30,807 bases of DNA from a virus: the IMG/VR virus record IMGVR_UViG_3300025759_000432, positions 1-30,807 of that record. The stretch is one strand, 5' to 3'. The position numbers and the translations under genes are program-made. Position 1 is the stretch's first letter. The number at the start of each line of letters is the position of its first letter. This document shows, in pieces, positions 3 to 25,400 of this stretch. Under the pieces are notes generated by a model. It had not been told where the DNA came from and made no database searches. It saw only the letters and a list, made by a program, of their open reading frames with translations.

Positions 3-674
3 GGAAGGGGACGCGATGAAATGGCTTGGACTGTCCTCGCTGAATACAGCGGCAACTTTTTTGTATTGGAGTCCGGCGGCACTACGCAGGGTTACAGCGA
101 AGAAGTATTGAAGATGCTGTCGATGAGGGCCAAGCGTTGGAACGTGACGCAGATCGTGGTCGAGTCGAATTTCGGAGATGGCCTCTTTACTGCTTTGTTG
201 CAGCCGGTGATGAACAAGGTTCACCCTTGTGGCATTGAAGAGATCAGGGTCAACCAGCAGAAGGAACGCCGTATCTGTGATCAGCTGGCACCGCTCACTC
301 AGCAGCATCGTTTGGTGATTAGCGCAGATGTGATCCGTAAGGATTATCAAGACGCTGAACGCAATAACGATCGCGGTTATGAACGCTCACTGCTATTCCA
401 GATGAGCCGCATAACAATGGATCGCGGAAGTTTGAGCGCAGATGACCGGATTGATAGTTTGGCTTTGGCCTGTCAATTCTTCACTGAAGCAGCAGCTCAA
501 GATCAAAACCGTGTCGCAGCGAATCGTGAATATGAGATGTTCATGAACCAGATCGAAATGGCTGCTGATGAGACAGGAGCCAGTATCGATGCACTGGCTC
601 TTGGTCTACCAACGAAATCGATTGGACGGTCGTATGGAGGCTCTAAGCGTGGCGTGTCTTGTCGGCGCCTTTGA
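3..674 (+). CDS. terL: Terminase large subunit, C-terminal nuclease part (T7 gp19-like), 5'-truncated
   Basis: This is the DNA-packaging motor's large subunit. The open frame runs through the window's left edge: codons before the first ATG (position 21) read GRGRDE and continue into MAWTVL, matching the GRGxDE segment at the start of the terminase nuclease domain. The ATG at 21 is therefore internal and not a start. Only the RNase H-fold nuclease that cuts concatemers is present. The Asp of GRGRDE, the Glu in VVVESNFGDG and the DDRIDSLALA segment are the expected acidic positions. The ATPase half lies outside the window. The 3' end overlaps the convergent small gene by 32 bp. In T7 this gene lies at the right end of the genome, so the genome ends are expected just downstream. 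Confidence 0.93.
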   Translation, partial: GRGRDEMAWTVLAEYSGNFFVLESGGTTQGYSEEVLKMLSMRAKRWNVTQIVVESNFGDGLFTALLQPVMNKVHPCGIEEIRVNQQKERRICDQLAPLTQQHRLVISADVIRKDYQDAERNNDRGYERSLLFQMSRITMDRGSLSADDRIDSLALACQFFTEAAAQDQNRVAANREYEMFMNQIEMAADETGASIDALALGLPTKSIGRSYGGSKRGVSCRRL

Positions 675-1264: not shown

Positions 1265-3565
1265 ATGCAGACTGAGCAAGATCTCCAACAGGAACAGCGC
1301 CACCGCCAACTCCGTGAAGCTAGGAGGGCGGAAGAGCGTTCGCAAAATCAGCACGTCTCGCTGAAATCTCTAGGCAGGGAAAGCAAAACGAGCTATGGCC
1401 ATGCGTTGTTCCAGAACTATGGCGAGCTGTATAGCCAAGGGATCAACCTATTCCTGGCGAAAAAGCTGATCGATCCCTATACCGCTGGTCGGCACCACCA
1501 GGCGTGGGAGTTTCTGCTGCATTTCGCTAGCCATGGGCCGCGTCCAATTGCAGTGATAGTTCTCACTTGTGTGATTGATCGCATCTCCACGACAAGCGAG
1601 AAGAAGAAGCTGGGCAAGACGATCGGTAAAGCATTGCAGGACGAGCTAAACGGCACTGTCCTGCATGAAGAGAAGGGCACTGTGCTGTTAAGCCTGGTCC
1701 GCAAAAAGTATGGGCGTAAGGCGGTAAGCAATGAAGTAATGAAAAAGTTGCAGGTGGCGCCGTCGAAATGGACGAATGAAGAAAAGACTGAGTTGGGTTG
1801 CCTTTGCCTGGACATCTTGATCTCCAGCACACAACTAATTGATGAACGGATTAGCGGCAGGAAGTTATTGATTCAGCCGACAGAAGACGTCAGGGAGCTG
1901 ATTCGGAATGAGCCCCCACGGGCGCTGCCGATTCGTCACCTGCCGTCGCTGATCCCACTGGAACCGTGGACTGATGTGAAACGCGGGAACAAGCCGTTGG
2001 TGTCCAGCCGGAAGCCAATGGATCTCAGTCATATCGATGCAGGTTCTGTTGGCTTGCAGATCCAGTTGGTGAATGGTCTTGAACGTCAGGCGATGTTGGT
2101 TGATCCGTGGATGGCTGAGGTTCAGCGGGAGGCATGGGACAGCAATATGCCTCTATTCCCCGTTCGGCGTGATCCAGACCCAAGGGAACCTGAGCTGTTT
2201 AGCTCGATGCGAAAGCGAGCACGAATTGAGGAATCACTGAGCCAGGCAGAGCAGGTGGCTGGTCGTGCGATCTGGCTGGATCATGACCTGGACTTTCGCG
2301 GCAGGGTCTATGTATCCAGCCGCTTGGTGGGTCACCAGGGGCCGGATCACGTCAAGGGATTAGTTGAGTTTGGTATTGGCAGCCGCTGTGACCAGGAGGG
2401 CTTGGAACAGATGCTGATGGCGGCTGCTGGTCATTACGGCCTAAGTAAAAGTGCTTGGTCGGATCGCTTGGCATGGGGGAAAGCCAACCTGCATCTGATG
2501 AGTGCTGTCGCGCAGCATCCATTGGACCGAATGGATTTATGGAAGGACGCATCTGATCCGTGGCAGTTCCTGCAGATCTCAAAGGCGGTGAATGACTGGT
2601 TGCTGGATCCACGCAAAGAAATGCACGTCCCGATCAGGTACGACCAGACGTGCAGCGGGATGGGGATCATCGCCTGTCTAACAAGAGACAGGGAGTTAGC
2701 CCGTCTTACCAATTGCATTGGTGATTGTCGAGCTGACGTCTACTCCCAAGTGGCGTCAGATCTGTCAGACGAATTGATGCGAGATCGAGATGGATTTGAT
2801 TTTGGCTCTGCTCGATTGGCTGAGATCTGGCTGAAGCATGGGATTACGCGAGATGTGACCAAAGGGCCGTGCATGACGTCGATCTATGGCGCACGGTATT
2901 TCGGAATCGTTGATCAGCTGATGGATTGGCTGATGGAAAAGAACCCATGCCTCGATCTGGAGGAGTGGGACCGGGAGTATGTGATGCCGGCGCAGTATCT
3001 GACGAGAAAGCTGAATCTTGCGATCGGCCACAGGCTGAAGAGCTGCGTACAGGTGGAGACATGGCTGAGAAGCATCAGCAAGGCCTGTATGAAGCGACAG
3101 CAGCGAATCAGGTTCACGACACCAATGGGCTTCCCTGTGGCCCTTGGAGTTGAGCAGGAGGCCAAGCAGCGGGTCAGGACCGAGATCAATGGCAGCAAGC
3201 GGTGGGCAACCAAAGAAGCTGGCGTGATTTCGGGTGAATTAAGTGCTCGCGCCACCAATCGGGGGATCACGGCCAACGTCATCCACGCTTTTGATGCGTC
3301 TTTTTGTCATGCAGTAGTGCAGACAATGCAGAGGTCCGACTTACCTGTCATCACGAACCACGACTGTTTTGCAACGCTGCCATCCGCTTCTGCTCAATTA
3401 CACCGGAGCCTGTTGTTTGAACTGCGCGAGCACTACAAGCCTGATTGGTTGACTGAGATCAAAGAGGAGATCGAGGAAAACGTTGGTATCACCCTGCCGG
3501 TGCCACCATTTGTTGGCGACTTGTGCGAGGGAGAAATAGGCAACAACCCTTATGTATTCTCGTAA
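1265..3565 (+). CDS. DNA-directed RNA polymerase, single-subunit (T7 gp1-like)
   Basis: It transcribes the phage's middle and late genes from phage promoters. The family signatures are present in order: the DxxGR motif DLDFRGRV (residues 341-348); motif A, YDQTCSG, with catalytic Asp at about 460; motif B, TKGPCMTSIYG, with Lys 533 and Tyr 541 spaced as K631 and Y639 in T7; and motif C, HDCF, with the second catalytic Asp at about 700. At 766 residues it is shorter than T7 RNAP (883), mainly N-terminally, where promoter recognition and lysozyme binding differ between phages. The ATG at 1265 has no clear Shine-Dalgarno sequence. No adjacent anti-restriction or kinase genes are seen: it is the first rightward gene after the intergenic region. 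Confidence 0.97.
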   Translation: MQTEQDLQQEQRHRQLREARRAEERSQNQHVSLKSLGRESKTSYGHALFQNYGELYSQGINLFLAKKLIDPYTAGRHHQAWEFLLHFASHGPRPIAVIVLTCVIDRISTTSEKKKLGKTIGKALQDELNGTVLHEEKGTVLLSLVRKKYGRKAVSNEVMKKLQVAPSKWTNEEKTELGCLCLDILISSTQLIDERISGRKLLIQPTEDVRELIRNEPPRALPIRHLPSLIPLEPWTDVKRGNKPLVSSRKPMDLSHIDAGSVGLQIQLVNGLERQAMLVDPWMAEVQREAWDSNMPLFPVRRDPDPREPELFSSMRKRARIEESLSQAEQVAGRAIWLDHDLDFRGRVYVSSRLVGHQGPDHVKGLVEFGIGSRCDQEGLEQMLMAAAGHYGLSKSAWSDRLAWGKANLHLMSAVAQHPLDRMDLWKDASDPWQFLQISKAVNDWLLDPRKEMHVPIRYDQTCSGMGIIACLTRDRELARLTNCIGDCRADVYSQVASDLSDELMRDRDGFDFGSARLAEIWLKHGITRDVTKGPCMTSIYGARYFGIVDQLMDWLMEKNPCLDLEEWDREYVMPAQYLTRKLNLAIGHRLKSCVQVETWLRSISKACMKRQQRIRFTTPMGFPVALGVEQEAKQRVRTEINGSKRWATKEAGVISGELSARATNRGITANVIHAFDASFCHAVVQTMQRSDLPVITNHDCFATLPSASAQLHRSLLFELREHYKPDWLTEIKEEIEENVGITLPVPPFVGDLCEGEIGNNPYVFS

Positions 3566-3649: not shown

Positions 3650-4357
3650 ATGGCTTACTGGCAATCACCAGTCATCTACACCGAACCATTCATTTGCGAA
3701 TACGCGAAGGTCTTGGGCGAGGCGCGAGGCATTGGCGCTGACGCTCTCGATAAGGACAAGGCATGGTCAGTGAACCTTCTCGGTTCAGCTGAAGACAAGC
3801 AGATCGTTGCCTTGCGCGAACAGGTCATGGCTTTCATGAAGGAGGCACATGGCGAAGGCGTTGGGTTCGGCAAAAACTCCAAGCCAAAGATTTCAGCCAA
3901 TGGGATGCCCCTCAAGGCAGAGACAATCAAGAACGAGGAAACCGGCGAACCGGAGCTGACAGGCCGGATGAAGTTCGTGGTTAAGCGCAAGCTGGTTCAA
4001 AAAGGCGGTGCTTTTAATGAAGGCCCACTGGTTGTTGACTCTCAAGGCAACTCCTGGCCGCAAAACGTCCTGATTGGAAACAACTCACTCGTTCGAGTGA
4101 AGCTGCATTTCTACGCTTGGGAATATGAAGGCGTTGGCTTGACTGCTGAGCTGCACGCTGTGCAAGTCGTTGAGCACATCCCTTATGGCGGTGCCGAAGA
4201 GCTGAGTGCTGACGGCTTTGGCGTTGTCAAAGGCGGCGCAATTGCACCAAAAGAAGAAGAAGCGGCACCTGTCGTGGATGAATGCAGCCTTGATTTCGGC
4301 AAGAAGTTAGCGGCAGCCGCTGCTGAAGTCGAAGCCATGGACGATCGACCTTTCTGA
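3650..4357 (+). CDS. Single-stranded DNA-binding protein (T7 gp2.5-like)
   Basis: It binds ssDNA during replication and recombination. The 235-residue length matches T7 gp2.5 (232). The N-terminal part (YTEPFICEYAKVLGEARG) and the central beta-rich part (VDSQGNSWPQNVLIGNNSLVRVKLHFYAW is the region around residues 125-155) fit the gp2.5 OB-fold. The C-terminus is acidic and ends AMDDRPF; a terminal aromatic residue after acidic residues is the protein-partner contact of phage and bacterial SSBs. The ATG at 3650 has no clear Shine-Dalgarno sequence. The stop codon shares a base with the next gene's ATG. As in T7, it follows the early region and precedes a nuclease. Confidence 0.9.
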   Translation: MAYWQSPVIYTEPFICEYAKVLGEARGIGADALDKDKAWSVNLLGSAEDKQIVALREQVMAFMKEAHGEGVGFGKNSKPKISANGMPLKAETIKNEETGEPELTGRMKFVVKRKLVQKGGAFNEGPLVVDSQGNSWPQNVLIGNNSLVRVKLHFYAWEYEGVGLTAELHAVQVVEHIPYGGAEELSADGFGVVKGGAIAPKEEEAAPVVDECSLDFGKKLAAAAAEVEAMDDRPF

Positions 4358-4728
4358 TGAAAAAGATGCGACGAGTGCGCATCACTTTGCACGTCCCTCT
4401 GATGAGTAAGGCACGGCCCAGATCTTTTTCTGGGCAAAAAGTTCCTTACATGCCTGCCAAATATAAAAAGTGGAAGGCAGAGGTTCGTGCTCAGTTGGCC
4501 GAGTGGTGGACTGATCCGCCGCTTGATCGGGTTGAGATGGTCATCCTCAAATTCAGAGGTCCAGCAAGGGCTGATCTCGACAACTTGATGGGTGCAATTC
4601 TTGATTCGGGCAATCAACTTATTTGGAAGGACGACCGTGTTTCGGTCATCTCAAGGTTGTACGGACAGTTTGAAAAAACAAAAGAGGCTGACTCTCAAAT
4701 TGAACTCACGCTTAGGTATTTCCCATGA
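4357..4728 (+). CDS. RusA-family Holliday junction resolvase / endodeoxyribonuclease
   Basis: A 123-residue protein expected to cut branched DNA during recombination and before packaging. The RusA signature is clear: an N-terminal [10 protein letters not shown] segment, [10 protein letters not shown] (residues 31-40), then [13 protein letters not shown] with Asp 73 and Asp 75, and [10 protein letters not shown] with Asp 92/93. The spacing agrees with E. coli RusA active-site residues D70, D72 and D91. In T7 this position is held by the unrelated endonuclease I (gp3), so this looks like a functional replacement. The gene overlaps both neighbours by ATGA-type junctions, so translation is probably coupled. 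Confidence 0.88.
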
Positions 4729-5285
4729 ATTGCCCACATTGCGGCACTGATAAAAGCCGCATTCTTGAAACGAGAGGCGACCGTCGGGTTCGCCAGTGTT
4801 CCAATTGCTTGAAAGATTTTGCGACCTATGAAGTCCTGGCTGCTTACGCCGGTCGTGACAGGGGATGGATCCATGAAGGTCCACCACAGGAAGAGGCAAC
4901 CGAAAAGCCCAAGCTGTTGCCGAAGCCTGAAAAGAAGAAGCCTGCGCGATTTCATCCTGTTCAGCTGGAAGACGAACTTCTGACTGCCGATAAGGATCTT
5001 GCTGATCTGCTGGTGGCTTGGTGGGATGAGTCTCGCTGGTCTAAGCACCAGAAATCAGCGTCGTGGACTCGCGCTGCATGGCTATCAAATGCAAATCGTG
5101 TGATCAAGATGCCTCATGCCAAGGCGATGGCATTAGCCAAGCGTGGTGTGGAGATGGGATGGCAAAGCCTGCAAGAGGAATACGTCAACGACGTTTCGTC
5201 TTCTACAGATCAAGGCCAGATGGCACCACGAAATAGTGCCATGCAAAAAGCAATTGAGCAGATTGAGCAATGGCAGACCAATTAG
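4725..5285 (+). CDS. NrdR-type zinc-ribbon protein with replisome-organiser-like C-terminus
   Basis: A 186-residue protein of two parts. Residues 1-40 form a four-cysteine zinc ribbon (C3, C6, C25, C28) with [18 protein letters not shown], close to the zinc ribbon of the bacterial ribonucleotide-reductase repressor NrdR, but the ATP-cone that follows in NrdR is absent. A Pro/Lys/Glu-rich linker (about 50-80) leads to a helical part (about 88-155) with [20 protein letters not shown] and [14 protein letters not shown]. That pattern resembles C-terminal regions of phage replication initiator or organiser proteins, which end in 'A..A...S...GW..L'. Role inferred: DNA binding and replisome recruitment; a transcription factor is the alternative. 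It overlaps the resolvase gene (ATGA) and the next gene by 16 bp. Confidence 0.55.
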
Positions 5286-5803
5286 ACGCTGAAACTTTCC
5301 TTGCTGGCGTCGAGATGATCCAGCAGCAACTTCGCATCAAACGTGATGACCAATGGTCAACCAACGTTTGCAAGCTGAAGTACACAAGCTTCCTGTCTGA
5401 ATTTCCCGAAGTCAGCAGCGTCCAGTTCTTCTGGGCCTGTGAGCAATGGATTCAGATGTTCTCTGCCAAAGACTTCGCCACATTCCCAACGTGGCAGGAG
5501 TTGATGATTCCGCTCTATGCGGTGGAGAACGGTAAAGCGAATCGCAGCTGGGGTTTCAAGCGAGATCTCCCTGCATTTATTGCGCCAACCCCAAGTCAAA
5601 AAGCTCAATTGCCGGAAAGGCCCCGCTCAATTGCAGGTGCTGTTGACCCTCTAAATAGTGACGCCTATGAAGTCGTGATCACTCCACGATCGGAACCACA
5701 GCATTTGTTGCCGGAAAGCGGTCTTGTCGAGAACGGCTTAACCGCAGAACAGTGGGCCAGCTATTTACGAGAGCTGGAGGCTGAGATTGGAACTTCTGAT
5801 TAG
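5270..5803 (+). CDS. Uncharacterised protein, possibly a replicative helicase loader
   Basis: A 177-residue protein. The first 85 residues are predicted helical by eye, with a Trp/Phe-rich stretch ([16 protein letters not shown]) and then [15 protein letters not shown] at about 69-83. Such an N-terminal helical bundle closing with 'FPxxxEl' is reminiscent of phage helicase loaders of the G39P type, but similarity is only at pattern level. The remainder is Pro-rich and probably flexible, ending in a short helix ([15 protein letters not shown]). Its place directly after the zinc-ribbon protein, with 16 bp overlap, fits an initiator-loader pair. Function is not established. Confidence 0.75.
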
Positions 5804-6020
5804 CAAGGGTTCTCTTCAGCAAATTCTGGAGAGAGGCTTGGTGACCGGAAAGTGGTCAATCGCTCAGTTCAACCGCCGTGATTACAAGTCTGAAACCAAA
5901 GTTCAGCTTGAGTTGATCCTGCCGAGAAGCGGCTTTTTACAAGAACACCCTCAATTCCTTGACCGAAATTTCCGTGACCTATCCGCCTACGAGAGAGCAA
6001 ACCATCGTGGAGCTTTCTGA
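5787..6020 (+). CDS. Small conserved-looking phage protein, TTG start
   Basis: A 77-residue protein that I do not assign to a family. The start is TTG at 5787, supported by a TGGAGG Shine-Dalgarno sequence ending 6 bases upstream, inside the end of the previous gene (17 bp overlap). The sequence [29 protein letters not shown] suggests a short helix followed by beta strands (KVQLELILP). It sits in the replication block just before the exonuclease, where T7-like phages carry many small accessory genes. Confidence 0.6.
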   Translation: MELLISKGSLQQILERGLVTGKWSIAQFNRRDYKSETKVQLELILPRSGFLQEHPQFLDRNFRDLSAYERANHRGAF

Positions 6021-6192
6021 GTTCAAGACCAAGGGTTCAGCTGACATCGACCTTTCAACTCTTCATGCTTATGCCCATTACGCCAGTGAGGAATACGACA
6101 AGAGTTTCCACGCTGACAATGCCCACGATCAGGCCTGGTGGGACGGCGCCCTTGCGATGGCCCGATGGATCATCGAGGCAGAAGGGCAATGA
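5959..6192 (+). CDS. Small hypothetical protein upstream of the exonuclease
   Basis: A protein of up to 77 residues, unknown family, rich in acidic and aromatic residues (YAHYASEEYDKSF, HDQAWWDGALAMARWIIEAEG). The start is uncertain: TTG at 5959 has no Shine-Dalgarno sequence, while in-frame GTG codons lie at 5974 and 6007, the latter preceded by GAGAG about 10 bases upstream. It overlaps the previous gene, and its stop shares bases with the exonuclease ATG (ATGA), so translation is probably coupled. Confidence 0.55.
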   Translation: MTEISVTYPPTREQTIVELSEFKTKGSADIDLSTLHAYAHYASEEYDKSFHADNAHDQAWWDGALAMARWIIEAEGQ

Positions 6193-6941
6193 ATTACATC
6201 CTTTATGACCTGGAGTTTTATGCCTATCGTTTTGCAGCCGGTAATTCTGAAGATGTTGAGTTCCCTGGCAGTTGGTGGATTCATACTTGCAATCACAAAG
6301 ACGCTTTGCTCGACTTCATCGAGCACGCCGAAGGGTTGCTTGAGAAATTCCCAGGACATGATTTGTTCCTCGCTCGTGGGGACCGGCGCAATTTCCGGCA
6401 TGACATCTGGCCGGAATACAAGGCAAACCGAAAAGATCGCCGTCGTCCTCCGGGCTATGGCAAATTCATCGAGGGTGTAAGTGACTACTCGAAAGGAAGG
6501 GGTTGGTTCACTGGTGGATTTAAGGGAGTCGAGGGCGATGACGTCCTTGGCATTCTGAATGAACCAGGCAGCGTCATCGTTTCTGGTGACAAGGACATGC
6601 TCACCTTGCCTGGCCAGCATTACAGGGATGGCGAGCTGGTCGAAGTCACCAAAAGCCAGGCTGACGCTGCTTTCTTCAAGCAAGCGTTAGTCGGTGATGC
6701 CAGTGATAATTACCCTGGCTGCCCCGGAATTGGCGACAAGAACAAGCTTTTCCGCAGTAAGGAATGGCTTACGGCTGATTCAGATGCGGAGTATTGGGCT
6801 CAAGTTCTACATCACTACGAACGCGCTGGATTTGATGCGTTGTATGCAATCAGTCAGGCTCGCTGTGCTCGCATACTCCGGGTCGGAGAATTCGACTTAG
6901 CAGCCGGAACTCCTCACATGTGGAATCCACCAGTAATCTGA
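6189..6941 (+). CDS. 5'-3' exonuclease (T7 gp6 / FEN-like)
   Basis: It removes RNA primers and degrades host DNA in T7-type replication. Metal-binding acidic residues of the 5'-nuclease family are in place: Asp 7 in LYDLEF, the segment FRHDIWPEYKANRK (69-82) that matches the helical-arch entry, E115/D117/D118 in GVEGDDVLG, D134/D136 in SGDKDM, and D170/D173 in GDASDNYPGCPGIGDK, which leads into the helix-hairpin-helix-like DNA-binding loop. I chose ATG 6189 over the longer frame from 6138 because it overlaps the upstream stop as ATGA, has GAAGGG just upstream and removes an Arg-rich leader without family similarity. This gives 250 residues, shorter than T7 gp6 (300). Confidence 0.9.
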   Translation: MNYILYDLEFYAYRFAAGNSEDVEFPGSWWIHTCNHKDALLDFIEHAEGLLEKFPGHDLFLARGDRRNFRHDIWPEYKANRKDRRRPPGYGKFIEGVSDYSKGRGWFTGGFKGVEGDDVLGILNEPGSVIVSGDKDMLTLPGQHYRDGELVEVTKSQADAAFFKQALVGDASDNYPGCPGIGDKNKLFRSKEWLTADSDAEYWAQVLHHYERAGFDALYAISQARCARILRVGEFDLAAGTPHMWNPPVI

Positions 6942-6959: not shown

Positions 6960-7145
6960 ATGGATTACTTCCCGCCGATCGATGAACGCCTTGTGGCTGC
7001 ATTAGGGGCGAAATTCCCTGATCAGTCACCGACGCTTGAGATGAGCGAGAAAGAGGTTTGGTTCGCGGCAGGGAATGCACATGTGATTAGGTGGCTTGCT
7101 ATGAAGATGGAAGAGCAAAACCAGCAAAACCTGGGAGGCCTCTGA
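6960..7145 (+). CDS. Small phage protein between exonuclease and virion genes (T7 6.5-position)
   Basis: A 61-residue protein beginning MDYFPPIDERLVAALGAKFPDQSP, then an amphipathic helix (EKEVWFAAGNAHVIRWLAMKMEEQ). The family resembles small proteins seen at this position in marine T7-like phages, but I know no function. It lies 18 bp after the exonuclease, and its TGA shares one base with the ATG of the next gene. Confidence 0.65.
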   Translation: MDYFPPIDERLVAALGAKFPDQSPTLEMSEKEVWFAAGNAHVIRWLAMKMEEQNQQNLGGL

Positions 7146-10890: not shown

Positions 10891-10908
10891 GATACTCTGC
10901 ACCACTGC
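10891..10908 (+). promoter_or_regulatory. Candidate phage promoter upstream of the capsid gene
   Basis: GATACTCTGCACCACTGC lies in the 108-bp gap between scaffold and capsid genes, about 80 bp before the capsid start. It shares ACTCTGCACCA with the sites at 909-923 and 1199-1214. T7 has its strong phi10 promoter at the same place. A small CCCC-TGC-GGGG hairpin follows (10919-10929) and could shape the 5' end of the capsid mRNA. Confidence 0.5.
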
Positions 10909-10986
10909 AACTGATCGGCCCCTGCGGGGATAACCGAAAGGATTGAGAGGCCGCGAATCCTACGCAAACTTCAATTCTTTTCAATC

Positions 10987-12021
10987 ATGGCTGACGCTGA
11001 TCTCAAAAGAGTAGGTCAAATTAAAGGCACCGGTGGTTCATGGACCGCTGGTGCTACTGCTCAAGATGGTTATCGTGCTCTGTTCCTTAAGCTTGGAAGC
11101 GCAGAAGTGCTTTCGGCATTCGAGGAGTATTGCGTCTTCAAAGGTAAAACTAAGGAGCGTAATATCAGGGGAGGCAAAAGTATGGCCTTTCCGATCACGG
11201 GCAAGCAAAGTGCGGCCTATCATCAGCCGGGCACTGAGATTACAGGAGGAACTAATGATCCCTCCGATCTCAATGAGCGCATCTTGACGTTAGATAGCCT
11301 CATGATTGCCGACGCAGCAATCGCTGAGGTTGATGAACTTATGGCCTACTGGCCGGCACGCCAAGAAATCACCCGCGAATTGGGCCGGGCTCTTGCCTAC
11401 GAGTACGACAAGCGCGTAGCTCGCATCATCTATGCAGCTGCTAACAACAGCACTGAGCCCCTTGCTAAGTCCATTAACACTGGCCGCGTAGGTGCAACAG
11501 TGACTCTTGGCGCTGACTACACCGGCGCTGCCGCAACTCGTCAAGAGAAGGGTGACGCTCTTGTGAACGCCATTTTCGATGCACGCATCGCGATGGAACA
11601 GAAGGACGTTCCTACCGACAACCTTTATGCAGTTTTCGGTCCTGATGACTATTACGCCATCACAATGTCGTCTCGCGCTATTAACACCGACTTCAATTCA
11701 GGCGGTGGCAATGGCACAATTGCAGACGGCAAAACCCTGATGGTGGCTGGGATTCCTCTTTATTCCAGTAATCACGTTGTCCAGCCTGCCTACTCGCTGG
11801 TCGCTGGAGATTGCAACGCAGAGTATGCACAAGACCTGAGTAACAACAAAGGCCTTGTATTCCATAAGGACTGCGCTGGCGTCTTGACCATGTTGAGCCC
11901 AGCTCTTCAGGTCACGTCAGGTGACTGGAACGTTTCTCACCAATCCACTTTGATGGTCGCCCGTCAAAACATTGGTATGGGCGTTCTGCGTGCCGAGTGT
12001 GCTGTCTCTATCGGCGTCTAG
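10987..12021 (+). CDS. Major capsid protein (T7 gp10A-like)
   Basis: It forms the icosahedral shell (HK97 fold). The 344-residue length is nearly identical to T7 gp10A (345). Recognisable parts are the N-terminal arm (LKRVGQIKGTGGSWTAGATAQ), the segment RNIRGGKSMAFPITGK preceding the E-loop-like region, LTLDSLMIADAAIAEVDELM (spine helix region) and LYAVFGPDDYYAITMSSRAINTDF, typical of this family. No ribosomal frameshift product comparable to T7 gp10B is evident: a strong terminator follows 30 bp after the stop. It lacks a clear Shine-Dalgarno sequence despite the high expression expected. Confidence 0.95.
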   Translation: MADADLKRVGQIKGTGGSWTAGATAQDGYRALFLKLGSAEVLSAFEEYCVFKGKTKERNIRGGKSMAFPITGKQSAAYHQPGTEITGGTNDPSDLNERILTLDSLMIADAAIAEVDELMAYWPARQEITRELGRALAYEYDKRVARIIYAAANNSTEPLAKSINTGRVGATVTLGADYTGAAATRQEKGDALVNAIFDARIAMEQKDVPTDNLYAVFGPDDYYAITMSSRAINTDFNSGGGNGTIADGKTLMVAGIPLYSSNHVVQPAYSLVAGDCNAEYAQDLSNNKGLVFHKDCAGVLTMLSPALQVTSGDWNVSHQSTLMVARQNIGMGVLRAECAVSIGV

Positions 12022-12787: not shown

Positions 12788-15323
12788 TCTCGTTTCTTAT
12801 GCAATCCCCAATCTGATCCAGGGGATCTCTCAACAACCTGATGCTCAGCGTGACCCAAGTCAAGGTGAGATTCAAGTCAATGGTGTCTCTTCGATTGCGG
12901 AAGGCCTTAGGAAGCGAGACAACACAACTGTTCTAGCGAAGGTGAGCACTTCCCCTTTCGGGGACGCCTTTATTCATTCGATCTTGAGAGATCAGAGTGA
13001 AGAGTATCTAGCTGTGATTACTAATTCAGTGATCAGGGTGTTTGATCTGCAGGGCGAAGAGTATGACGTTCTGCCAGACACGAATGCTTATAACTATCTA
13101 GCAAGCGTCACTGACGCTCGACAGCAGGTCAGGGCTGTAACCATTGCGGATTACACATTTGTGATCAACACAAATGAAGTCGTAGCAATGGATTCAGCTG
13201 TTGCCCCAAAAGTATCTAGGCCACCCCACGAATGCTTGATTTGGGTTAAGCAAGCTGCTTACGGCAATGAGTACACCGTCAACGTCAATGGATTTGAAAC
13301 CACAGTTCAGACAGCAGTAGCGCCGGTAGTCAGTGACGGCACGACTGTTACTGAGAATCGGATCAGTTCAGAAGAAATCGCTGCGCAGATCATCGCTGGT
13401 CTTGGCACGGCTGGGCTTACCGGTTACACCATTGAGCAGTCTGGATCGGTGATCTGGATTTGGGGGACCAGCGCAATCACGGTAAAGGCGACAGACGCTA
13501 AGGCCAATTCAACGATCACTGCAATTCTGTCTTCAGTTCAATCTTTTATAGAGCTTCCAACAATTGCGCCACAGGGCTATCAGATTGAAATTGAAGGAGA
13601 CCCAGGAAACAACTTTGATGGATATTACGTGGAGTTTGAGCCGCGTGATGGTGTGTTTGGCGAGGGGTCATGGCTTGAGACCGTGAGCCCTGGAGTCGAA
13701 TATAAGATCAATGCCTTGACGATGCCTCACGCTCTGATCAGGACAGGGGCATCTCCAAAGCCTCAGTTTTGGTTTGGGGCAATAGATGGTCAGACAGTCG
13801 CAAACATCCCCGACCCTGTGCCTACTTGGGGGGAACGGACTTGCGGTGATTACGACACAGCAAAAGATCCTAGTTTTGTTGGCAATGCCATTGCAGATGT
13901 CTTTATCTATAAAAATCGACTCGGGTTCCTTGCCGATGAGAATGTCATTCTTAGCCGTACTCGCGAGTTCTTTGCTTTTTTCCCAGAGACGGTTACGACT
14001 GTTTTAGATACTGACCCGATTGATGTTGTCGCTAGCAATAACAGAGTATCAATCCTTAAATATGCAGTCCCTTACCAAGACGAGCTGATCTTATTTAGTG
14101 CTCAATATCAGTTTCGTTTCAATGCTGCTGAGACAGTCTTGACACCAAGAACAGCGCAGCTGACAGTCTTGACTCAGTTTGAAGTCGATACCACCGTCAG
14201 GCCACAGCAGGCAGGTAGTGGAATTATCTTTGCTCAGCAAAACGGCGATTGGACACAGCTCAGAGAGTTCAGCGTGCGCGGGGCGGGAACTGCCTTGACG
14301 GCAGATGCCGCAGACCTGACTGGTTATGTGTCGAGCTATGTGCCGTCTGAGATTTTCAAGATGACGGTGAATGATACAGGCAACGGCTTGTATGCAATCA
14401 GTGGTCGTCAGCAGTCTGGAATCAATTATCAAAATCGTATTTACACCTATAAGTATTTTTACCGAAACAGCGGCAGCGGTGCCGAGCGAGTGCAGTCAAG
14501 TTGGAGTCACTTTGAGTTAGATGGCGTTGATCAAATCCTCCAAGTCCTTTGCGTAGAAGAAGTCCTTTATTTGTTGACTCAATACGGCAATGACGTTTAT
14601 TTGGAGAAAATGCCGGTGTCAGACCGTCAACCAGAAACGGTGACGATTGCACCGTTCAAGCTTTTGCTTGATCGACGGGTGACTAGCACTTCTGAGACGC
14701 CACCTTTGCTGCGCATGGCGGCAGGCGTTTATGACTTACAAAGCAATCGAACTACATTCACGTTGCCTTACTCGGCGGCAAGCAATACACAGGTTTGGAC
14801 AATGTGGGACGCCGCTGATCCAGCTGCTTTGGCCCCTGTCTTTTTGGGAGAGACCGCATCTGGCACAACCGTGACTTGCAAGGGTGACTACTCCAATGTT
14901 GATGTAGCCGCAGGCGAACCTTTTGAATTTAGGTATCGATTCACCAAGTTCAAGTTGGTCAAGGAAATTGGTGGTGGAAAAACAGCGGCGAATGCGACTC
15001 GCACACAAGTAAGGAATGCCAAGCTTAGATACCACGAAACTGGGTATTTCCAAGTCAAGACCTTGCCTGAGCATCGAGAGCCAGGCCTTTACACGTATGA
15101 CGGGACAGTGAGTGGTGTCATGAACGCTGCAATTGGACGTCCATCGACTGCTGATTTGTCAGATAACTATGAGCGTTATGCCGAAGGGATCTTTTCAATT
15201 CCTATTTATGGCAAGGGTGATCAGGTTTATGTAGAGCTAATTTCTGATAGACCGCTACCTTGCAAGTTCTCCACTTGTGAATGGGTGGCGCTATTAACTA
15301 CAAGAGCGCAGGCTTTGCAATGA
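12780..15323 (+). CDS. Tail tubular protein B (nozzle, T7 gp12-like)
   Basis: It forms the hexameric tail nozzle that holds the fibres. At 847 residues it is close to T7 gp12 (794). The N-terminus ANLVSYAIPNLIQGISQQPD, with the conserved GISQQ(P), is diagnostic, as are RLGFLADENVILSRTREFFAFFP in the middle and PLTPRTAQL-type beta-propeller strands. The likely start is TTG at 12780, which places this N-terminal motif correctly and overlaps the gp11 stop; no ATG in the frame lies closer. The stop is shared with the next gene's ATG (ATGA). Confidence 0.95.
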   Translation: MANLVSYAIPNLIQGISQQPDAQRDPSQGEIQVNGVSSIAEGLRKRDNTTVLAKVSTSPFGDAFIHSILRDQSEEYLAVITNSVIRVFDLQGEEYDVLPDTNAYNYLASVTDARQQVRAVTIADYTFVINTNEVVAMDSAVAPKVSRPPHECLIWVKQAAYGNEYTVNVNGFETTVQTAVAPVVSDGTTVTENRISSEEIAAQIIAGLGTAGLTGYTIEQSGSVIWIWGTSAITVKATDAKANSTITAILSSVQSFIELPTIAPQGYQIEIEGDPGNNFDGYYVEFEPRDGVFGEGSWLETVSPGVEYKINALTMPHALIRTGASPKPQFWFGAIDGQTVANIPDPVPTWGERTCGDYDTAKDPSFVGNAIADVFIYKNRLGFLADENVILSRTREFFAFFPETVTTVLDTDPIDVVASNNRVSILKYAVPYQDELILFSAQYQFRFNAAETVLTPRTAQLTVLTQFEVDTTVRPQQAGSGIIFAQQNGDWTQLREFSVRGAGTALTADAADLTGYVSSYVPSEIFKMTVNDTGNGLYAISGRQQSGINYQNRIYTYKYFYRNSGSGAERVQSSWSHFELDGVDQILQVLCVEEVLYLLTQYGNDVYLEKMPVSDRQPETVTIAPFKLLLDRRVTSTSETPPLLRMAAGVYDLQSNRTTFTLPYSAASNTQVWTMWDAADPAALAPVFLGETASGTTVTCKGDYSNVDVAAGEPFEFRYRFTKFKLVKEIGGGKTAANATRTQVRNAKLRYHETGYFQVKTLPEHREPGLYTYDGTVSGVMNAAIGRPSTADLSDNYERYAEGIFSIPIYGKGDQVYVELISDRPLPCKFSTCEWVALLTTRAQALQ

Positions 15324-15766
15324 AGTGGGCTTTCCCAACGGAACAACGCATCCTTGAGGTTGGAACCAACCTTAGAAAGGCCGATCGTGATGAGGTTTGG
15401 CTTAGCCACCGCCAAAAGGGGCTTGATGCCGTTATTGAGAGCTGGAAGCACAGCAGTCTCTGCCGTTGCATCGTGACGGACGAGGGCGAGCCGGTGGGAG
15501 TAACTGGTCTTGTGAGAAACCGGATTTGGTTGCTGGGAACCGATAATTTGGTGGCAACACGCGAAAGACGTTTGCAACTGTGCAAAGAAGGGCGAGGATG
15601 GGTAGAGCACTGTTTGCAGGTAGCTGGTATGGCAATTGGAAATGATGTCTATGCCAAGAACAGGGCCAGCATCCGTTGGCTTAAGCATCTGGGATTTAGC
15701 GTCGCGTCCCCAAGGCCTTTAGGGGAAAGTGCTGCGTTGTTCTGTGAGTTCTGGAGGTCTGAATAA
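15320..15766 (+). CDS. T7 gp13-like protein with GNAT acyltransferase fold
   Basis: A 148-residue protein at the position of T7 gene 13, which is needed for virion assembly. The sequence has the GNAT pattern: CRCIVTDEGEPVGVTGLV (beta strands around 45-62), NRIWLLGTDNLVATRERRLQL, and a terminal NDVYAKNRASIRWLKHLGFSV. The last matches T7 gp13 VGNTSHIRFLKTIGA as I recall it, where the Asn and the following helix bind the cofactor in active acetyltransferases. The pyrophosphate loop (Q/RxxGxG/A) is not obvious, so catalytic activity is doubtful. Start ATG 15320 overlaps the upstream TGA, in preference to a longer frame from 15281. Confidence 0.78.
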   Translation: MKWAFPTEQRILEVGTNLRKADRDEVWLSHRQKGLDAVIESWKHSSLCRCIVTDEGEPVGVTGLVRNRIWLLGTDNLVATRERRLQLCKEGRGWVEHCLQVAGMAIGNDVYAKNRASIRWLKHLGFSVASPRPLGESAALFCEFWRSE

Positions 15767-22300: not shown

Positions 22301-22439
22301 AAAACCAGATCTCACACCTGAAGAGCAAGAGCTAAAGCGGATGAAGGACGCAAGCGCCAAGGTTAAAAAGCAATTGAGCGAGGATGAGCAAGAGCTTGCC
22401 AGAATGCTCAAACAGCAGGAGATTAACTGCAATGCCTGA
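19374..22439 (+). CDS. Large internal virion protein (gp16-like, first part)
   Basis: A 1021-residue protein starting at ATG 19374, 7 bp after gp15, with AGGA upstream. By position it belongs to the ejected core. Features in order: an acidic N-terminus (DFEGFEIPELSDQD), a hydrophobic Gly/Ala region (GGVVAGEVAGVVTGTAVL, about 165-182), a second one near 285-300 (APLALIGAGAAVP), and a coiled coil at about 540-620 (AAKQAELEGVEGQIAEVQRQ onwards). A short SAP-like helical segment (about 690-735) and a Lys/Arg/Pro-rich tail (KPKARTKAKRKPKPKP) follow. Near the end a 15-residue unit containing ERTY(I/V)GQLE occurs twice (22118-22207). I see no transglycosylase motif. Assignment rests on size and gene order. 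Confidence 0.7.
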   Translation: MNDFEGFEIPELSDQDMQGMEPVTARQGNSPRQEMAGKVKDDFGNYISADTQIGGVSAREWYGMNPDQRRAQKAKGFEESLGPLKPLGQFVNSIASPGFIEGIISEPFNAVSNLTNAIGDKIQGKEVDLSDAWQIRQEDLAKLNPQRTTLTGRSEEILPQDEGGRAWGGVVAGEVAGVVTGTAVLNKLGKIPALVRLGQAALKTRTAQKIAVKAATDRRVRGAVNFGRWGGEGLVDTAFSTLYQDPRGNIANLGDAVGLELPGRYDEETDNYLDAFGKSLVTDGVAAPLALIGAGAAVPITRRLATNGDLPRFMQEVADIELAPYNASVGQAAAVQAPGRMMDVPGARPEPGIPSPVPTGNRSLAPAAAADLVDTGARSLPPVGRTSFDYGQFEAGPGSVAGTFDSAISRTTSDQRLIQQVEAQRTRLEGMGLQVRQGTGQYELSFPGSVDPEVKLQVRAQQVERGKLLKMAEEGQDVSEELAQIDQSITNLISGGTEAEIPPLQVELPFQDAPDPRPEISTFLAELDELDDAQLRQILPNVDVNEKLAAKQAELEGVEGQIAEVQRQIAEVNERVQLPDGTKKKLSATGAKRKLNPLTRQLEELQANVERLQQTPAQPFLVGDQLNLAMDQQKVLELFPSAEIEMPPFFDMEWDEVAGMYRTSKSPQGYASVDAYREALQKFPRDLLRKMNAPLEVSGDGRIAAILKARTGRRVWSAKKDDIIDAMIEFAQKQGKFLEPVGQQLEFEMQQSLPFNSLRQSLDADGNPVVDLVPSEFPGGPGMDAAQREDFKQRILQAAIDNGEVQPDVTPIPAKVPQPEFNQTELIDSLFADETGQLPLMFATDMIPAYKAGGKSAETMLEEIRLRYDWAELDNASKQASKEALMKKEGWDTMTWEEQKQMGLMDPFLYAVPTRERTYIGQLEAITPRNERTYVGQLEPISLGDELSEGVLVEALAPEPVAKPKARTKAKRKPKPKPDLTPEEQELKRMKDASAKVKKQLSEDEQELARMLKQQEINCNA

Positions 22440-25400
22440 ATGCCCTGAACTCGCCGCAAAGATTGCGGCAATGCAAGAAAAGATTGCAAAGCAAAAAAAG
22501 GTTGATCGTGCTCTTGATGCAACGCTGAAATCAGAACCAGAGGCAGAGGGCGGCACGCCAAAAGAAAAGAAGCCGCGTGCCAAGTTCAAGATGATGGATG
22601 GCACAACGTCTTACGCAGACCCAGAAGTCTTTGCGAAAGATCTTGACAGCATGACTGCCAGGCTTGGGGAGGATGAACTAAAGAAAACAGTTCAATCTAT
22701 CTTCGACAATAAGATTACGCCAAGGGGAGAAGTTGGCTTAAACATCAACTACAAAGATCTTGATTTCAATGAAGAGAACTTAAATCAAGCTCTTGTGATG
22801 ATGGGGGCAAGACGAGCAGCGACAAAGGGCGGCCAAGACTTAATGATGCAATTCACTGCTGAAGTTGCAACAGAAGAGTTTATGGCTCAGCTGACTTTGC
22901 AAGGCGGGAACCCAGAGGACATGCTGGCCAGTCTTTCAAGAGATGCAAAGAAAGTTGCCAACCTTCCATTAGCAATGGTTCAGTCAAAACGATTGAAGAT
23001 GGATTCTTCAAGAAAGCTGGCTGATGAGCTGACTCAATACGCTGGGCAAATTAAAGAAGGCGGCATTGGGGTTACGGATAGACAGAAGGCAGGGCTTCTC
23101 AACATGACTAGATTTGCCATTGCATTTGAAGAGCTTGATGCAACTCTCTCGCGCAAAGTTGGTCAAGCGTTGCGAGCGCGGCAGTTTCGAGGCAAAGAAA
23201 TAGATGTTGACGGATTGCTTGGCAAAGTTACATACGACGGCAATGAATCTTTTGCGGCATTGCAAGAGGGCAGCCTTGCCTCACAAATCTTGAAAGCAAT
23301 TGAGACCGGAGATGCTGCATCTTTAGAGCGAGTGGCAAGAGCGAAGCGTCTTGGCGCTGACTCAGGAGCAAGCCTGACCGAGCCAAACTTCTTCACGCAG
23401 TTGCGCTTGCTTAATTCTTACAGGAAAGGAAATCTATTCTCTTCCCCTGCAACTTTCATCCAACGCAATGTGGTGTCAGGTGCTTTGGTCAATGCCAGCT
23501 ACATGATGGAAGATGTCTATGAAGGTGCTTTCCGTGTTGGTGCCAGAGATGGATTCAAGGCTGCACAGTATGCGTCCGCTCAAACGTATCAAGGGTTTAG
23601 TTCTGCATGGTCAAATGCAATGGCAAGTCTGACAAAAGGGGAAGCAACATTTACTAGAGCAGAACTAAAGGAAGGTGTTGATATTCAATCTCTTCAAAAT
23701 CGCAAGCAGGCTGAGTACGACAGACTTAACTATTCATGGGACAAAGTTGTCGGTGCTGATCGTGGCATTGCCCCTGGCAATGTTGTCGCGACAATGAACC
23801 TGCTTAACTCAGGCGCTCGTATTGCAATTGGCAGCATTGTTGAAAAGATCCCAGGCGCTAGAAAATCAACAGCTGGTTACTCGCCTTCTTTCTCGCTGCT
23901 TGCCGCAGGTGATGAGATCAATCGCACGATGGCGTTTCAGTGGAAGTCCAGCCATGAGTCATACCTTCAAGCCGTAGAAGAATGGAATGAACTTGCCGAC
24001 ACTGCAGGTCGTTCAAAGTCTGATTGGGTTGCTAAGCGAACCAATGAGCTAGTTGATAAAGCGGTCTTCAAGGGGGCAATGACTGATGACGAGTTGGCAA
24101 AACTTCGACGGACAATTGGCGCAAAGCAATACTCCGACATGAGCAATGAGACCTTGCGTCTCAAGCTGATGAATGATCAGAACGGAATGCCAAATCCGAT
24201 GAGTGCTGCAGGGAAGGCAGGCTTAGAGCGTGGCGCGGACGTGACGTTTACTCAGAAGCTGAAGGATCCAGTGCTGGGTGGTGTGCAACAGATGCGGCAA
24301 AACCCAATCGTTGGCTGGATGGCTCCTGTCTTTCAAACTCCAATCAATGGATTGAAGTGGACTGTTAGCCGTGACCTGCTGTTCAACATTGCCGACAGCT
24401 TGAGGAGAGAAAGCATTCAAGGCATGGCAAAGGTCAAGGGCAAAGAACTGCCTTACACCGGCCAGCAAATGGCTAAGGACAGAGCGCGGGCATTGCAATC
24501 TGTTTTTATTGCAACAGCAACACAAGCTTTATGGCAAGCCGGACTGTTTACCGATGGTGGCCCGTTTAATCCTGAGAACCGCAAGCTGACAAATAGCAAG
24601 ATCCCTCCTTATTCATTCAGCTTGGGCGGGACAGCAGCTCTTGGTTTCTCAAAGCTTCTTTTCCCTGGCGCATCAATTGACCTAGTTGATCTGATGGGGC
24701 TGCAGGCTGATGTGATGCGAGCTTTCAGCGAAGGTGTGATGACTGAAGGTGACCAGAACAGATTGATGAATGGAATTACACAGGCTTACGCAAGAGCTGT
24801 TGAAAACAAAAACTCTCTTAGCTCGGTGTTGGATATTCTTTCGGCGTTAGGTGGATTGGCACAGGGAAGGGAGGTGCAGTGGGGCCGGATCATGCGCAGC
24901 AACATGAACGGCATTCTTCCTTTGTCCGGTCTGCTGACATCTGGATCGCGTGGCTTCACTGATGCAGATCTGATTGCCACTGACCGCAGGCAGATGACGC
25001 CAACTGAATTGGAGGCCATTGGCAAAGATCCAAACTATGCACTGTTTGAGGACTTCGCTCAGACTGTTGCTCGCGGGTATCCGTTGCTTGGATTGCCTGG
25101 TGCAAAGCTGCGTCATCGGGATTGGATGGGACGCGAAAGGCAGAAACCTTTTGGCTTGCCTTGGGATGCAACTTCCCCATTCGCTCCAATTGTTATTAAA
25201 GACAAGCCACTTGACCAATGGTTGGTGAAGCATGGCTTTGGTGGTGTGCCCAACTCCGATGGCAGGCTGGGTTCTAAAGAGTTGGGCACTGGCAATTTTG
25301 CAACGATGAGTGTTGAAGAGGAGAACGACTATCGGGAAAACATGTGGTCATCCAAGGGTGAGATACCAGCCGAGATGATCCTTGGCCAGTCCAATACCTT

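What the first reader, a model, noticed from the sequence alone, without database searches (positions are those of the whole stretch)
3650..6941. T7-like replication block without DNA polymerase or primase-helicase; possible host-replisome recruitment
In T7 the interval from SSB (2.5) to exonuclease (6) contains primase-helicase (4) and DNA polymerase (5). Here that interval is only about 1.8 kb and contains a RusA resolvase, an NrdR-ribbon/organiser-like protein, a loader-like protein and two small ORFs. A phage with its own RNA polymerase but lambda-style recruitment of the host replisome would be an unusual hybrid. The unseen genome part between adhesin and terminase may contain the missing genes.
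Basis: partly seen in the sequence, partly recalled or inferred. Interest (0 to 1): 0.8.

Follow-up and report, generated by a model that had tools for sequence, protein, structure and literature searches.

The report
T7-like cyanophage with no replication enzymes
This virus of small cyanobacteria makes its own RNA polymerase like phage T7 but has lost both of T7's DNA-copying enzymes, and in their place carries two small proteins that most likely steer the host's own DNA-copying machine onto the viral genome.

Summary
Confirmed. The SSB-to-exonuclease interval is 1.8 kb (7.6 kb in T7) and holds RusA, a zinc-ribbon protein, a loader-like protein and two small overlapping ORFs, all under purifying selection. 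The window is a 30.8 kb fragment, so I tested the refutation in relatives. The 94%-identical relative (40.9 kb, every ORF >=200 aa assigned), the isolate S-SRP02, the complete genome S38C3 and 24 further contigs (33-58 kb) all lack a PolA polymerase and a DnaB/gp4 helicase; controls P-SSP7 and MPP-C behave as expected. Eighty distinct SSB-exonuclease intervals carry zinc-ribbon protein plus loader, none with gp4 or polymerase. A sister clade keeps gp4 but also lacks polymerase. S-SRP02's published "DNA polymerase I" is only the 5'-3' exonuclease.

Host-replisome recruitment is best supported, not proven. The loader is homologous (hhalign E 5e-8) to proteins in cyanobacterial prophage-like elements that sit directly behind winged-helix initiator-like proteins, in two of them near ERF/RecT-type recombination genes: a lambda O-P-like layout. 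It is not a member of the lambda P, G39P, DnaC or DciA families by sequence.

Missing polymerase is known in MPP-C cyanopodoviruses, which keep gp4; loss of both, with a replacement pair, is a new variant.

The parts
3..674 (+). terminase large subunit, C-terminal part (cut by the window end)
   Evidence: phrog_15524 E 6e-54, PF22530 E 9e-33
1265..3565 (+). T7-type single-subunit RNA polymerase
   Evidence: phrog_414 E 2e-119, PF00940 E 2e-50; 48% identical to S38C3, 42% to S-SRP02
3650..4357 (+). gp2.5-like ssDNA-binding/annealing protein
   Evidence: phrog_112 E 3e-14
4357..4728 (+). RusA-type Holliday junction resolvase (position of T7 gp3 endonuclease I)
   Evidence: PF05866 E 3e-10, phrog_140 E 3e-14
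4725..5285 (+). 'organiser': NrdR-type C4 zinc ribbon (residues 1-36) plus helical C-terminal domain; stands where gp4 stands in the sister clade
   Evidence: PF22811 E 1e-7; C3, C6, C25, C28 invariant in 60 relatives; AF2 pLDDT 80, pTM 0.45; dN/dS 0.06
5270..5803 (+). 'loader': small helical protein, 60-member family, homologue of a prophage gene placed behind a winged-helix initiator-like gene
   Evidence: AF2 pLDDT 84; hhalign E 4.8e-8 to the prophage family; dN/dS 0.09
5787..6020 (+). conserved small ORF (77 aa, TTG start)
   Evidence: conserved in all 9 relatives compared, S-SRP02 and S38C3 included (48-55% identity); dN/dS 0.04
5959..6192 (+). conserved small ORF (77 aa, TTG start), overlaps the previous ORF and the exonuclease
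   Evidence: conserved in close relatives, weak match in S38C3, none in S-SRP02; dN/dS 0.02
6189..6941 (+). 5'-3' exonuclease (T7 gp6 type)
   Evidence: phrog_107 E 2e-37, PF02739 E 7e-12; annotated 'DNA polymerase I' in S-SRP02 and S37C6
6960..7145 (+). conserved 61-aa protein at the border to the virion genes
   Evidence: phrog_4970 E 1e-10

Best explanation
The window belongs to a lineage of T7-like (Autographiviridae) phages of picocyanobacteria (S-SRP02 / uvMED group G9) that transcribes with its own RNA polymerase but does not build its own replisome. SHOWN: near-complete relatives carry neither a PolA-family DNA polymerase nor a gp4/DnaB-type primase-helicase; the gp4 position holds a zinc-ribbon 'organiser' gene followed by a 'loader' gene; the loader is homologous to genes that follow winged-helix initiator-like genes in cyanobacterial prophage-like elements. 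INFERRED: the organiser (zinc ribbon and C-terminal domain) marks a phage origin and recruits the loader; the loader takes DnaB from the host, in competition with the host's own loader DciA, and places it on the phage DNA; DnaB then brings host DnaG and the Pol III holoenzyme. Phage SSB, RusA and the 5'-3' exonuclease serve annealing, junction resolution and primer or end processing.
For: Absence: PF00476 and PF03796 0 in G000, G001, G004, S-SRP02, S38C3 and in 24 contigs of 33-58 kb; P-SSP7 rings for both, MPP-C P-SCSP1u for DnaB_C only. In G001 no ORF >=200 aa is unassigned. Own profiles (controls correct): 80 distinct SSB-exonuclease intervals with organiser + loader, 0 with gp4 or DNAP; 14 with gp4 and only a short ribbon ORF, none with loader. 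RNAP tree: these two classes form one clade (SH-aLRT 99) away from T7, P-SSP7 and MPP-C. Loader homologues: hits in genomes of the Cyanobium MAG's family, hhalign E 4.8e-8 over 112 columns, each directly 3' of a large protein with an N-terminal HTH-like region; near it ERF (PF04404 E 2e-10), exonuclease and integrase genes in G215, and RusA-like and RecT-like sequences in G153 (by eye). Four of six such genomes carry DciA. S-SRP02 is an isolate with burst size about 50 (PMC8790148), so its gene set suffices for growth.
Against: No direct evidence of DnaB binding or origin binding. The loader model has no significant PDB fold match; a G39P-annotated protein appears in BFVD only at E 1.2. The organiser C-terminus has no family; its resemblance to the prophage initiator C-terminus is not significant (hhalign P 0.15-0.24). 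No iteron cluster was found in the block. MPP-C phages dispense with polymerase without such a pair. Most relatives are metagenomic contigs.
Confidence: 0.7

Rival explanations
1. Fragment artefact: polymerase and primase-helicase lie in the unseen part between adhesin and terminase.
For: The window is a linear fragment without end repeats.
Against: The same part is present in G001, G004, G015 (terminal repeat 127 bp), S38C3 and S-SRP02 and holds lysis, MarR-like, integrase, antirestriction and TerS-like genes, no polymerase or helicase.
Confidence: 0.02
2. Recombination-dependent replication without a dedicated loader: transcripts made by the phage RNA polymerase or strand invasion with SSB, exonuclease and RusA create primed forks, and host PriA loads DnaB. 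Organiser and loader do something else, for example shut down host replication by holding DnaB.
For: SSB, resolvase and exonuclease are kept in all classes. Phage proteins that sequester DnaB are known (lambda P toxicity, PMC4926192).
Against: The pair stands in the gp4 position and never together with gp4; loader homologues in prophage-like elements follow initiator-like genes. A pure host-shutoff role would not need to be exclusive with gp4.
Confidence: 0.17
3. Host Pol I rather than Pol III copies the phage DNA, as one option proposed for MPP-C, with the phage exonuclease acting beside Pol I.
For: T7 gp5 belongs to the Pol I family and the 5'-3' exonuclease resembles the Pol I N-terminal domain; hypothesis stated in PMC9860041.
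Against: Does not explain loss of the helicase or the presence of a loader homologue; Pol I is mainly a repair enzyme (PMC9860041).
Confidence: 0.08
4. The genomes encode an unrecognised, highly divergent polymerase or helicase.
For: Cannot be excluded by profile searches alone.
Against: G001 has no unassigned ORF of 200 aa or more; the larger unassigned ORFs in G004, G015 and G018 lie mostly among tail or adhesin genes.
Confidence: 0.02

Closest known systems
Synechococcus phage S-SRP02 (MW822601) and uncultured MedDCM-OCT-S38-C3 (AP013548, Stopalavirus; uvMED group G9)
   Same: Same block: RNAP, SSB, RusA, ribbon protein, loader, small ORFs, exonuclease, then portal; same absences.
   Different: About 32-60% identity in the block proteins. 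The S-SRP02 paper calls the 246-aa exonuclease 'DNA polymerase I' and uses a 'DNA polymerase' gene in its concatenated tree; it does not mention primase or helicase.
MedDCM-OCT-S37-C6 and S31-C1 (Oinezvirus, Nohivirus) and relatives
   Same: Same RNAP clade; no DNA polymerase; an NrdR-type ribbon ORF next to RusA.
   Different: Keep a gp4-type TOPRIM-DnaB_C protein and lack the loader and the organiser C-terminus.
MPP-C cyanopodoviruses (P-SCSP1u; PMC9860041)
   Same: T7-like, infect picocyanobacteria, lack DNA polymerase and auxiliary metabolic genes.
   Different: Keep gp4 primase-helicase; fall outside the clade in the RNAP tree, so probably an independent loss.
Phage lambda O-P replication module
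   Same: Adjacent, overlapping initiator-like and loader-like genes near recombination genes; no phage polymerase or helicase.
   Different: No detectable homology to O or P; zinc ribbon instead of a winged helix; phage supplies its own T7-type RNA polymerase.
Initiator + loader pair of cyanobacterial prophage-like elements (G194, G215, G299, G153, G173)
   Same: Loader homologous, hhalign E 4.8e-8; same gene order.
   Different: The upstream initiator has an N-terminal HTH-like region, not a zinc ribbon; homology of the C-terminal domains is suggestive only.

Membership tests
T7 replication module (Autographiviridae) | single-subunit RNA polymerase, gp2.5-like SSB, gp6-like exonuclease in this order | tested here: met
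T7 replication module (Autographiviridae) | gp5 DNA polymerase (PF00476) | tested here: not met
   absent in window and in near-complete relatives; control P-SSP7 rings
T7 replication module (Autographiviridae) | gp4 primase-helicase (DnaB_C, PF03796) | tested here: not met
   absent; controls P-SSP7, P-SCSP1u, S37C6 and S31C1 ring
MPP-C cyanopodoviruses | no DNA polymerase but gp4 kept; MPP-C branch | tested here: not met
   polymerase absent (met), gp4 absent (not met), separate branch in RNAP tree
S-SRP02 / uvMED G9 lineage | shared block, RNAP clade and virion genes | tested here: met
lambda P / G39P / DciA loader families (Pfam) | sequence match to the family model | tested here: not met
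   none of 61 loader members hits these models at E <= 1 in Pfam; no hhalign relation to lambda P
G39P-type loader fold | same fold | tested here: inconclusive
   G39P-annotated viral model only at Foldseek E 1.2; no PDB match
DnaC/DnaI AAA+ loader | AAA+ ATPase with Walker A | tested here: not met
   0 of 60 members has GxxxxGK[ST]
cyanobacterial prophage loader family | homology over the conserved core | tested here: met
   hhalign E 4.8e-8; HMM E 1e-10 to 9e-7 on three proteins
NrdR repressor | zinc ribbon plus ATP-cone domain | tested here: not met
   ribbon met (PF22811; PDB NrdR E 1e-9), no ATP-cone hit
helicase loader (function) | binds DnaB and loads it on DNA | not testable with these tools
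   needs biochemistry

The most novel reading that the evidence does not exclude
A T7-like phage lineage gave up both replicative enzymes and, in the gp4 position, took over an initiator-loader-type pair related to that of cyanobacterial prophages, with the initiator's DNA-binding head replaced by a zinc ribbon already present beside gp4 in the sister clade. Phage-driven transcription is thus joined to a host-driven replisome.
Probability: 0.5. Interest if true: 0.75.

Novelty: new variant of a known kind. Interest (0 to 1): 0.6.

Why it matters
T7 is the textbook case of a phage with a self-sufficient replisome. Here related cyanophages fall into three classes: polymerase plus primase-helicase, primase-helicase only, and neither. 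That makes replacement of a viral replisome by the host's directly testable in an isolated phage (S-SRP02). It also means that DNA polymerase and primase-helicase are unsafe marker genes for cyanopodoviruses, and that a published 'DNA polymerase I' label in this lineage is wrong.

Tried and rejected
Pfam and PHROGs scans of the whole loader family gave nothing above chance. Weak hits of ten organisers to phrog_678 'replication initiation O-like' (best E 0.01) were not seen with C-terminal halves of ten organisers alone, so they were not used. Foldseek against PDB found no loader match and only the NrdR ribbon for the organiser; against BFVD only the S38C3 homologue is significant. hhalign of organiser and loader with lambda O and P: none, but single sequences on the lambda side give little power. 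Organiser C-terminus against prophage initiator C-terminus: aligns in the expected register but P 0.15-0.24, not claimed. The lambda P scan returned near-identical copies only, so no broader P profile was built. SPP1 records were not held. No iteron cluster in the block. S-SRP02's 'DNA polymerase III beta subunit' is a partial match absent from the 12 other records searched, so not used as support. G012 (58.6 kb) looks like a chimera and does not show a prophage junction. A viral scan with the prophage loader alignment found nothing. Nineteen intervals without any of the four genes between SSB and exonuclease are T7-like loci whose gene order differs; all carry gp4 and DNAP elsewhere in the locus.
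Full report
WHAT IS THERE. The window is a 30,807-base viral record without end repeats. Its left part runs: terminase large subunit (cut), T7-type RNA polymerase, gp2.5-like SSB, RusA, a 186-aa protein with an N-terminal NrdR-type zinc ribbon, a 177-aa protein without any family match, two small ORFs, and a 5'-3' exonuclease, followed by virion genes. SSB ends at 4357 and the exonuclease starts at 6189, so the interval is 1.83 kb; in T7 it is 7.65 kb and holds gp4 and gp5. The SSB-exonuclease genes overlap each other by 1 to 62 nt and all evolve under purifying selection: dN/dS 0.01-0.16 against the closest relative.

IS THE ABSENCE REAL? Because the window is a fragment, I used relatives. 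G001 (40,882 b; loader 94% identical) and G004 (41,412 b) are near-complete. G015 and G030 have direct terminal repeats of 127 and 123 bp. S38C3 and the isolate S-SRP02 are deposited as complete genomes. None has a PolA domain or a DnaB_C domain; the records S37C6 and S31C1 ring for DnaB_C. In all, twenty-four further contigs of 33-58 kb that carry the loader or organiser are negative for both, whereas P-SSP7 is positive for both and the MPP-C phage P-SCSP1u for DnaB_C only. In G001 every ORF of 200 aa or more has an assigned homologue, so there is no room for a divergent polymerase of ordinary size. The part missing from the window corresponds in relatives to tail, lysis, integrase, MarR-like, antirestriction and TerS-like genes.

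THREE CLASSES. With profiles built here and checked on T7, P-SSP7, P-SCSP1u, S-SRP02, S38C3, S37C6 and S31C1, the SSB-exonuclease interval falls into three kinds. Class I has DNA polymerase and gp4. Class II has gp4 and a short separate zinc-ribbon ORF but no polymerase (S37C6, S31C1 and relatives; PolA 0 of 11 further records, one of 42.7 kb). Class III has the ribbon joined to a helical C-terminus, then the loader, and neither gp4 nor polymerase (80 distinct intervals). Loader and gp4 never occur together. Loci were fetched by loader, organiser or gp4, so class sizes are not abundances. In an RNAP tree classes II and III form one clade (SH-aLRT 99) apart from T7, P-SSP7 and MPP-C; class II is one clade (100). 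Polymerase was thus probably lost before that clade spread and independently of MPP-C. The direction of the gp4/loader exchange is not settled: two class III lineages branch near or below class II on long branches.

WHAT THE TWO REPLACEMENT PROTEINS ARE. The organiser keeps four invariant cysteines (C3, C6, C25, C28) and a tryptophan-rich C-terminus; sequence and structure searches see only the NrdR ribbon, without ATP-cone. The loader has a confident AlphaFold2 model (pLDDT 84), no Walker A motif and no PDB match. The useful clue came from cyanobacterial genomes: in genomes of the family of a Cyanobium MAG, weak loader hits proved homologous by profile comparison (E 4.8e-8, 112 columns). In five genomes these genes follow directly behind large proteins that share a C-terminal domain and have an HTH-like N-terminus. 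In G215 an ERF annealing protein, an exonuclease and an integrase lie nearby; in G153 sequences that look like RusA and RecT by eye. That is the layout of a lambda-type O-P module. Whether the organiser C-terminus is homologous to the initiator C-terminus is suggestive only (P 0.15-0.24).

MECHANISM. Most likely the organiser marks the phage origin, the loader takes DnaB from the host, and host DnaG and Pol III follow. Four of six such cyanobacterial genomes encode a recognisable DciA, so the phage loader would compete with or replace DciA. Shown: gene content, exclusivity, homology of the loader, selection. Inferred: origin binding, DnaB binding, Pol III recruitment. S-SRP02 shows that such a gene set supports growth (PMC8790148).

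COMPARISON WITH WHAT IS KNOWN. Lack of DNA polymerase in T7-like cyanophages was reported for MPP-C, where recruitment of host Pol I or Pol III was proposed, gp4 being present (PMC9860041). The 2013 paper that described group G9 says no host assignment was possible, and I found no remark on replication genes in it (PMC3861242). The S-SRP02 paper labels the 246-aa exonuclease 'DNA polymerase I' and builds a tree on terminase, 'DNA polymerase' and capsid genes; Pfam sees only exonuclease domains in that protein. Loss of both enzymes together with a replacement pair does not appear in the papers that could be searched, a library that lacks most subscription journals.

LIMITS. Most relatives are metagenomic contigs, at least one of them probably chimeric (G012). 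The window's own missing few kb were not seen. No binding data exist.

Noticed in passing
L001 (MW822601) 22389-23129: Annotated and published as 'DNA polymerase I', but only 246 aa of 5'-3' exonuclease; a 'DNA polymerase' gene was used in that paper's concatenated tree. S37C6 carries the same label (AP013546 20750-21481).
   Followed up: yes
L001 (MW822601) 10903-11607: Annotated 'DNA polymerase III beta subunit'; match to clamp families is partial (32-62 aa) and it also matches a RusA-like PHROG; absent from the other 12 records searched. A real clamp here would strengthen Pol III recruitment.
   Followed up: partly
L197 (G030) 11218-11685, minus strand: Complete relative with a RuvC-looking ORF (start MNIMAIDPGPEMSG) near the position of RusA between SSB and the organiser; identified by eye only.
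   Followed up: no
G012 (L185-L187), 58,560 b: Contig holds two different terminase genes and two integrases: probably a chimera of two related phages.
   Followed up: partly
L018 16271-16708, minus strand (G001 35271-35708): A second zinc-ribbon ORF of the same PHROG (phrog_10675) with weak HNH endonuclease matches, in the lysis region.
   Followed up: no
L369 3-5.8 kb, L370 5-9.5 kb, L371, L382, L383: Recurring initiator + loader + recombination module in cyanobacterial genomes with no Pfam or PHROG family for the initiator or loader; candidate new lambda-like replication module.
   Followed up: partly
window 15281-15766: Acetyltransferase-like gene between tail tube B and internal virion genes, conserved in this position in S-SRP02 and the other G9 genomes.
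   Followed up: no
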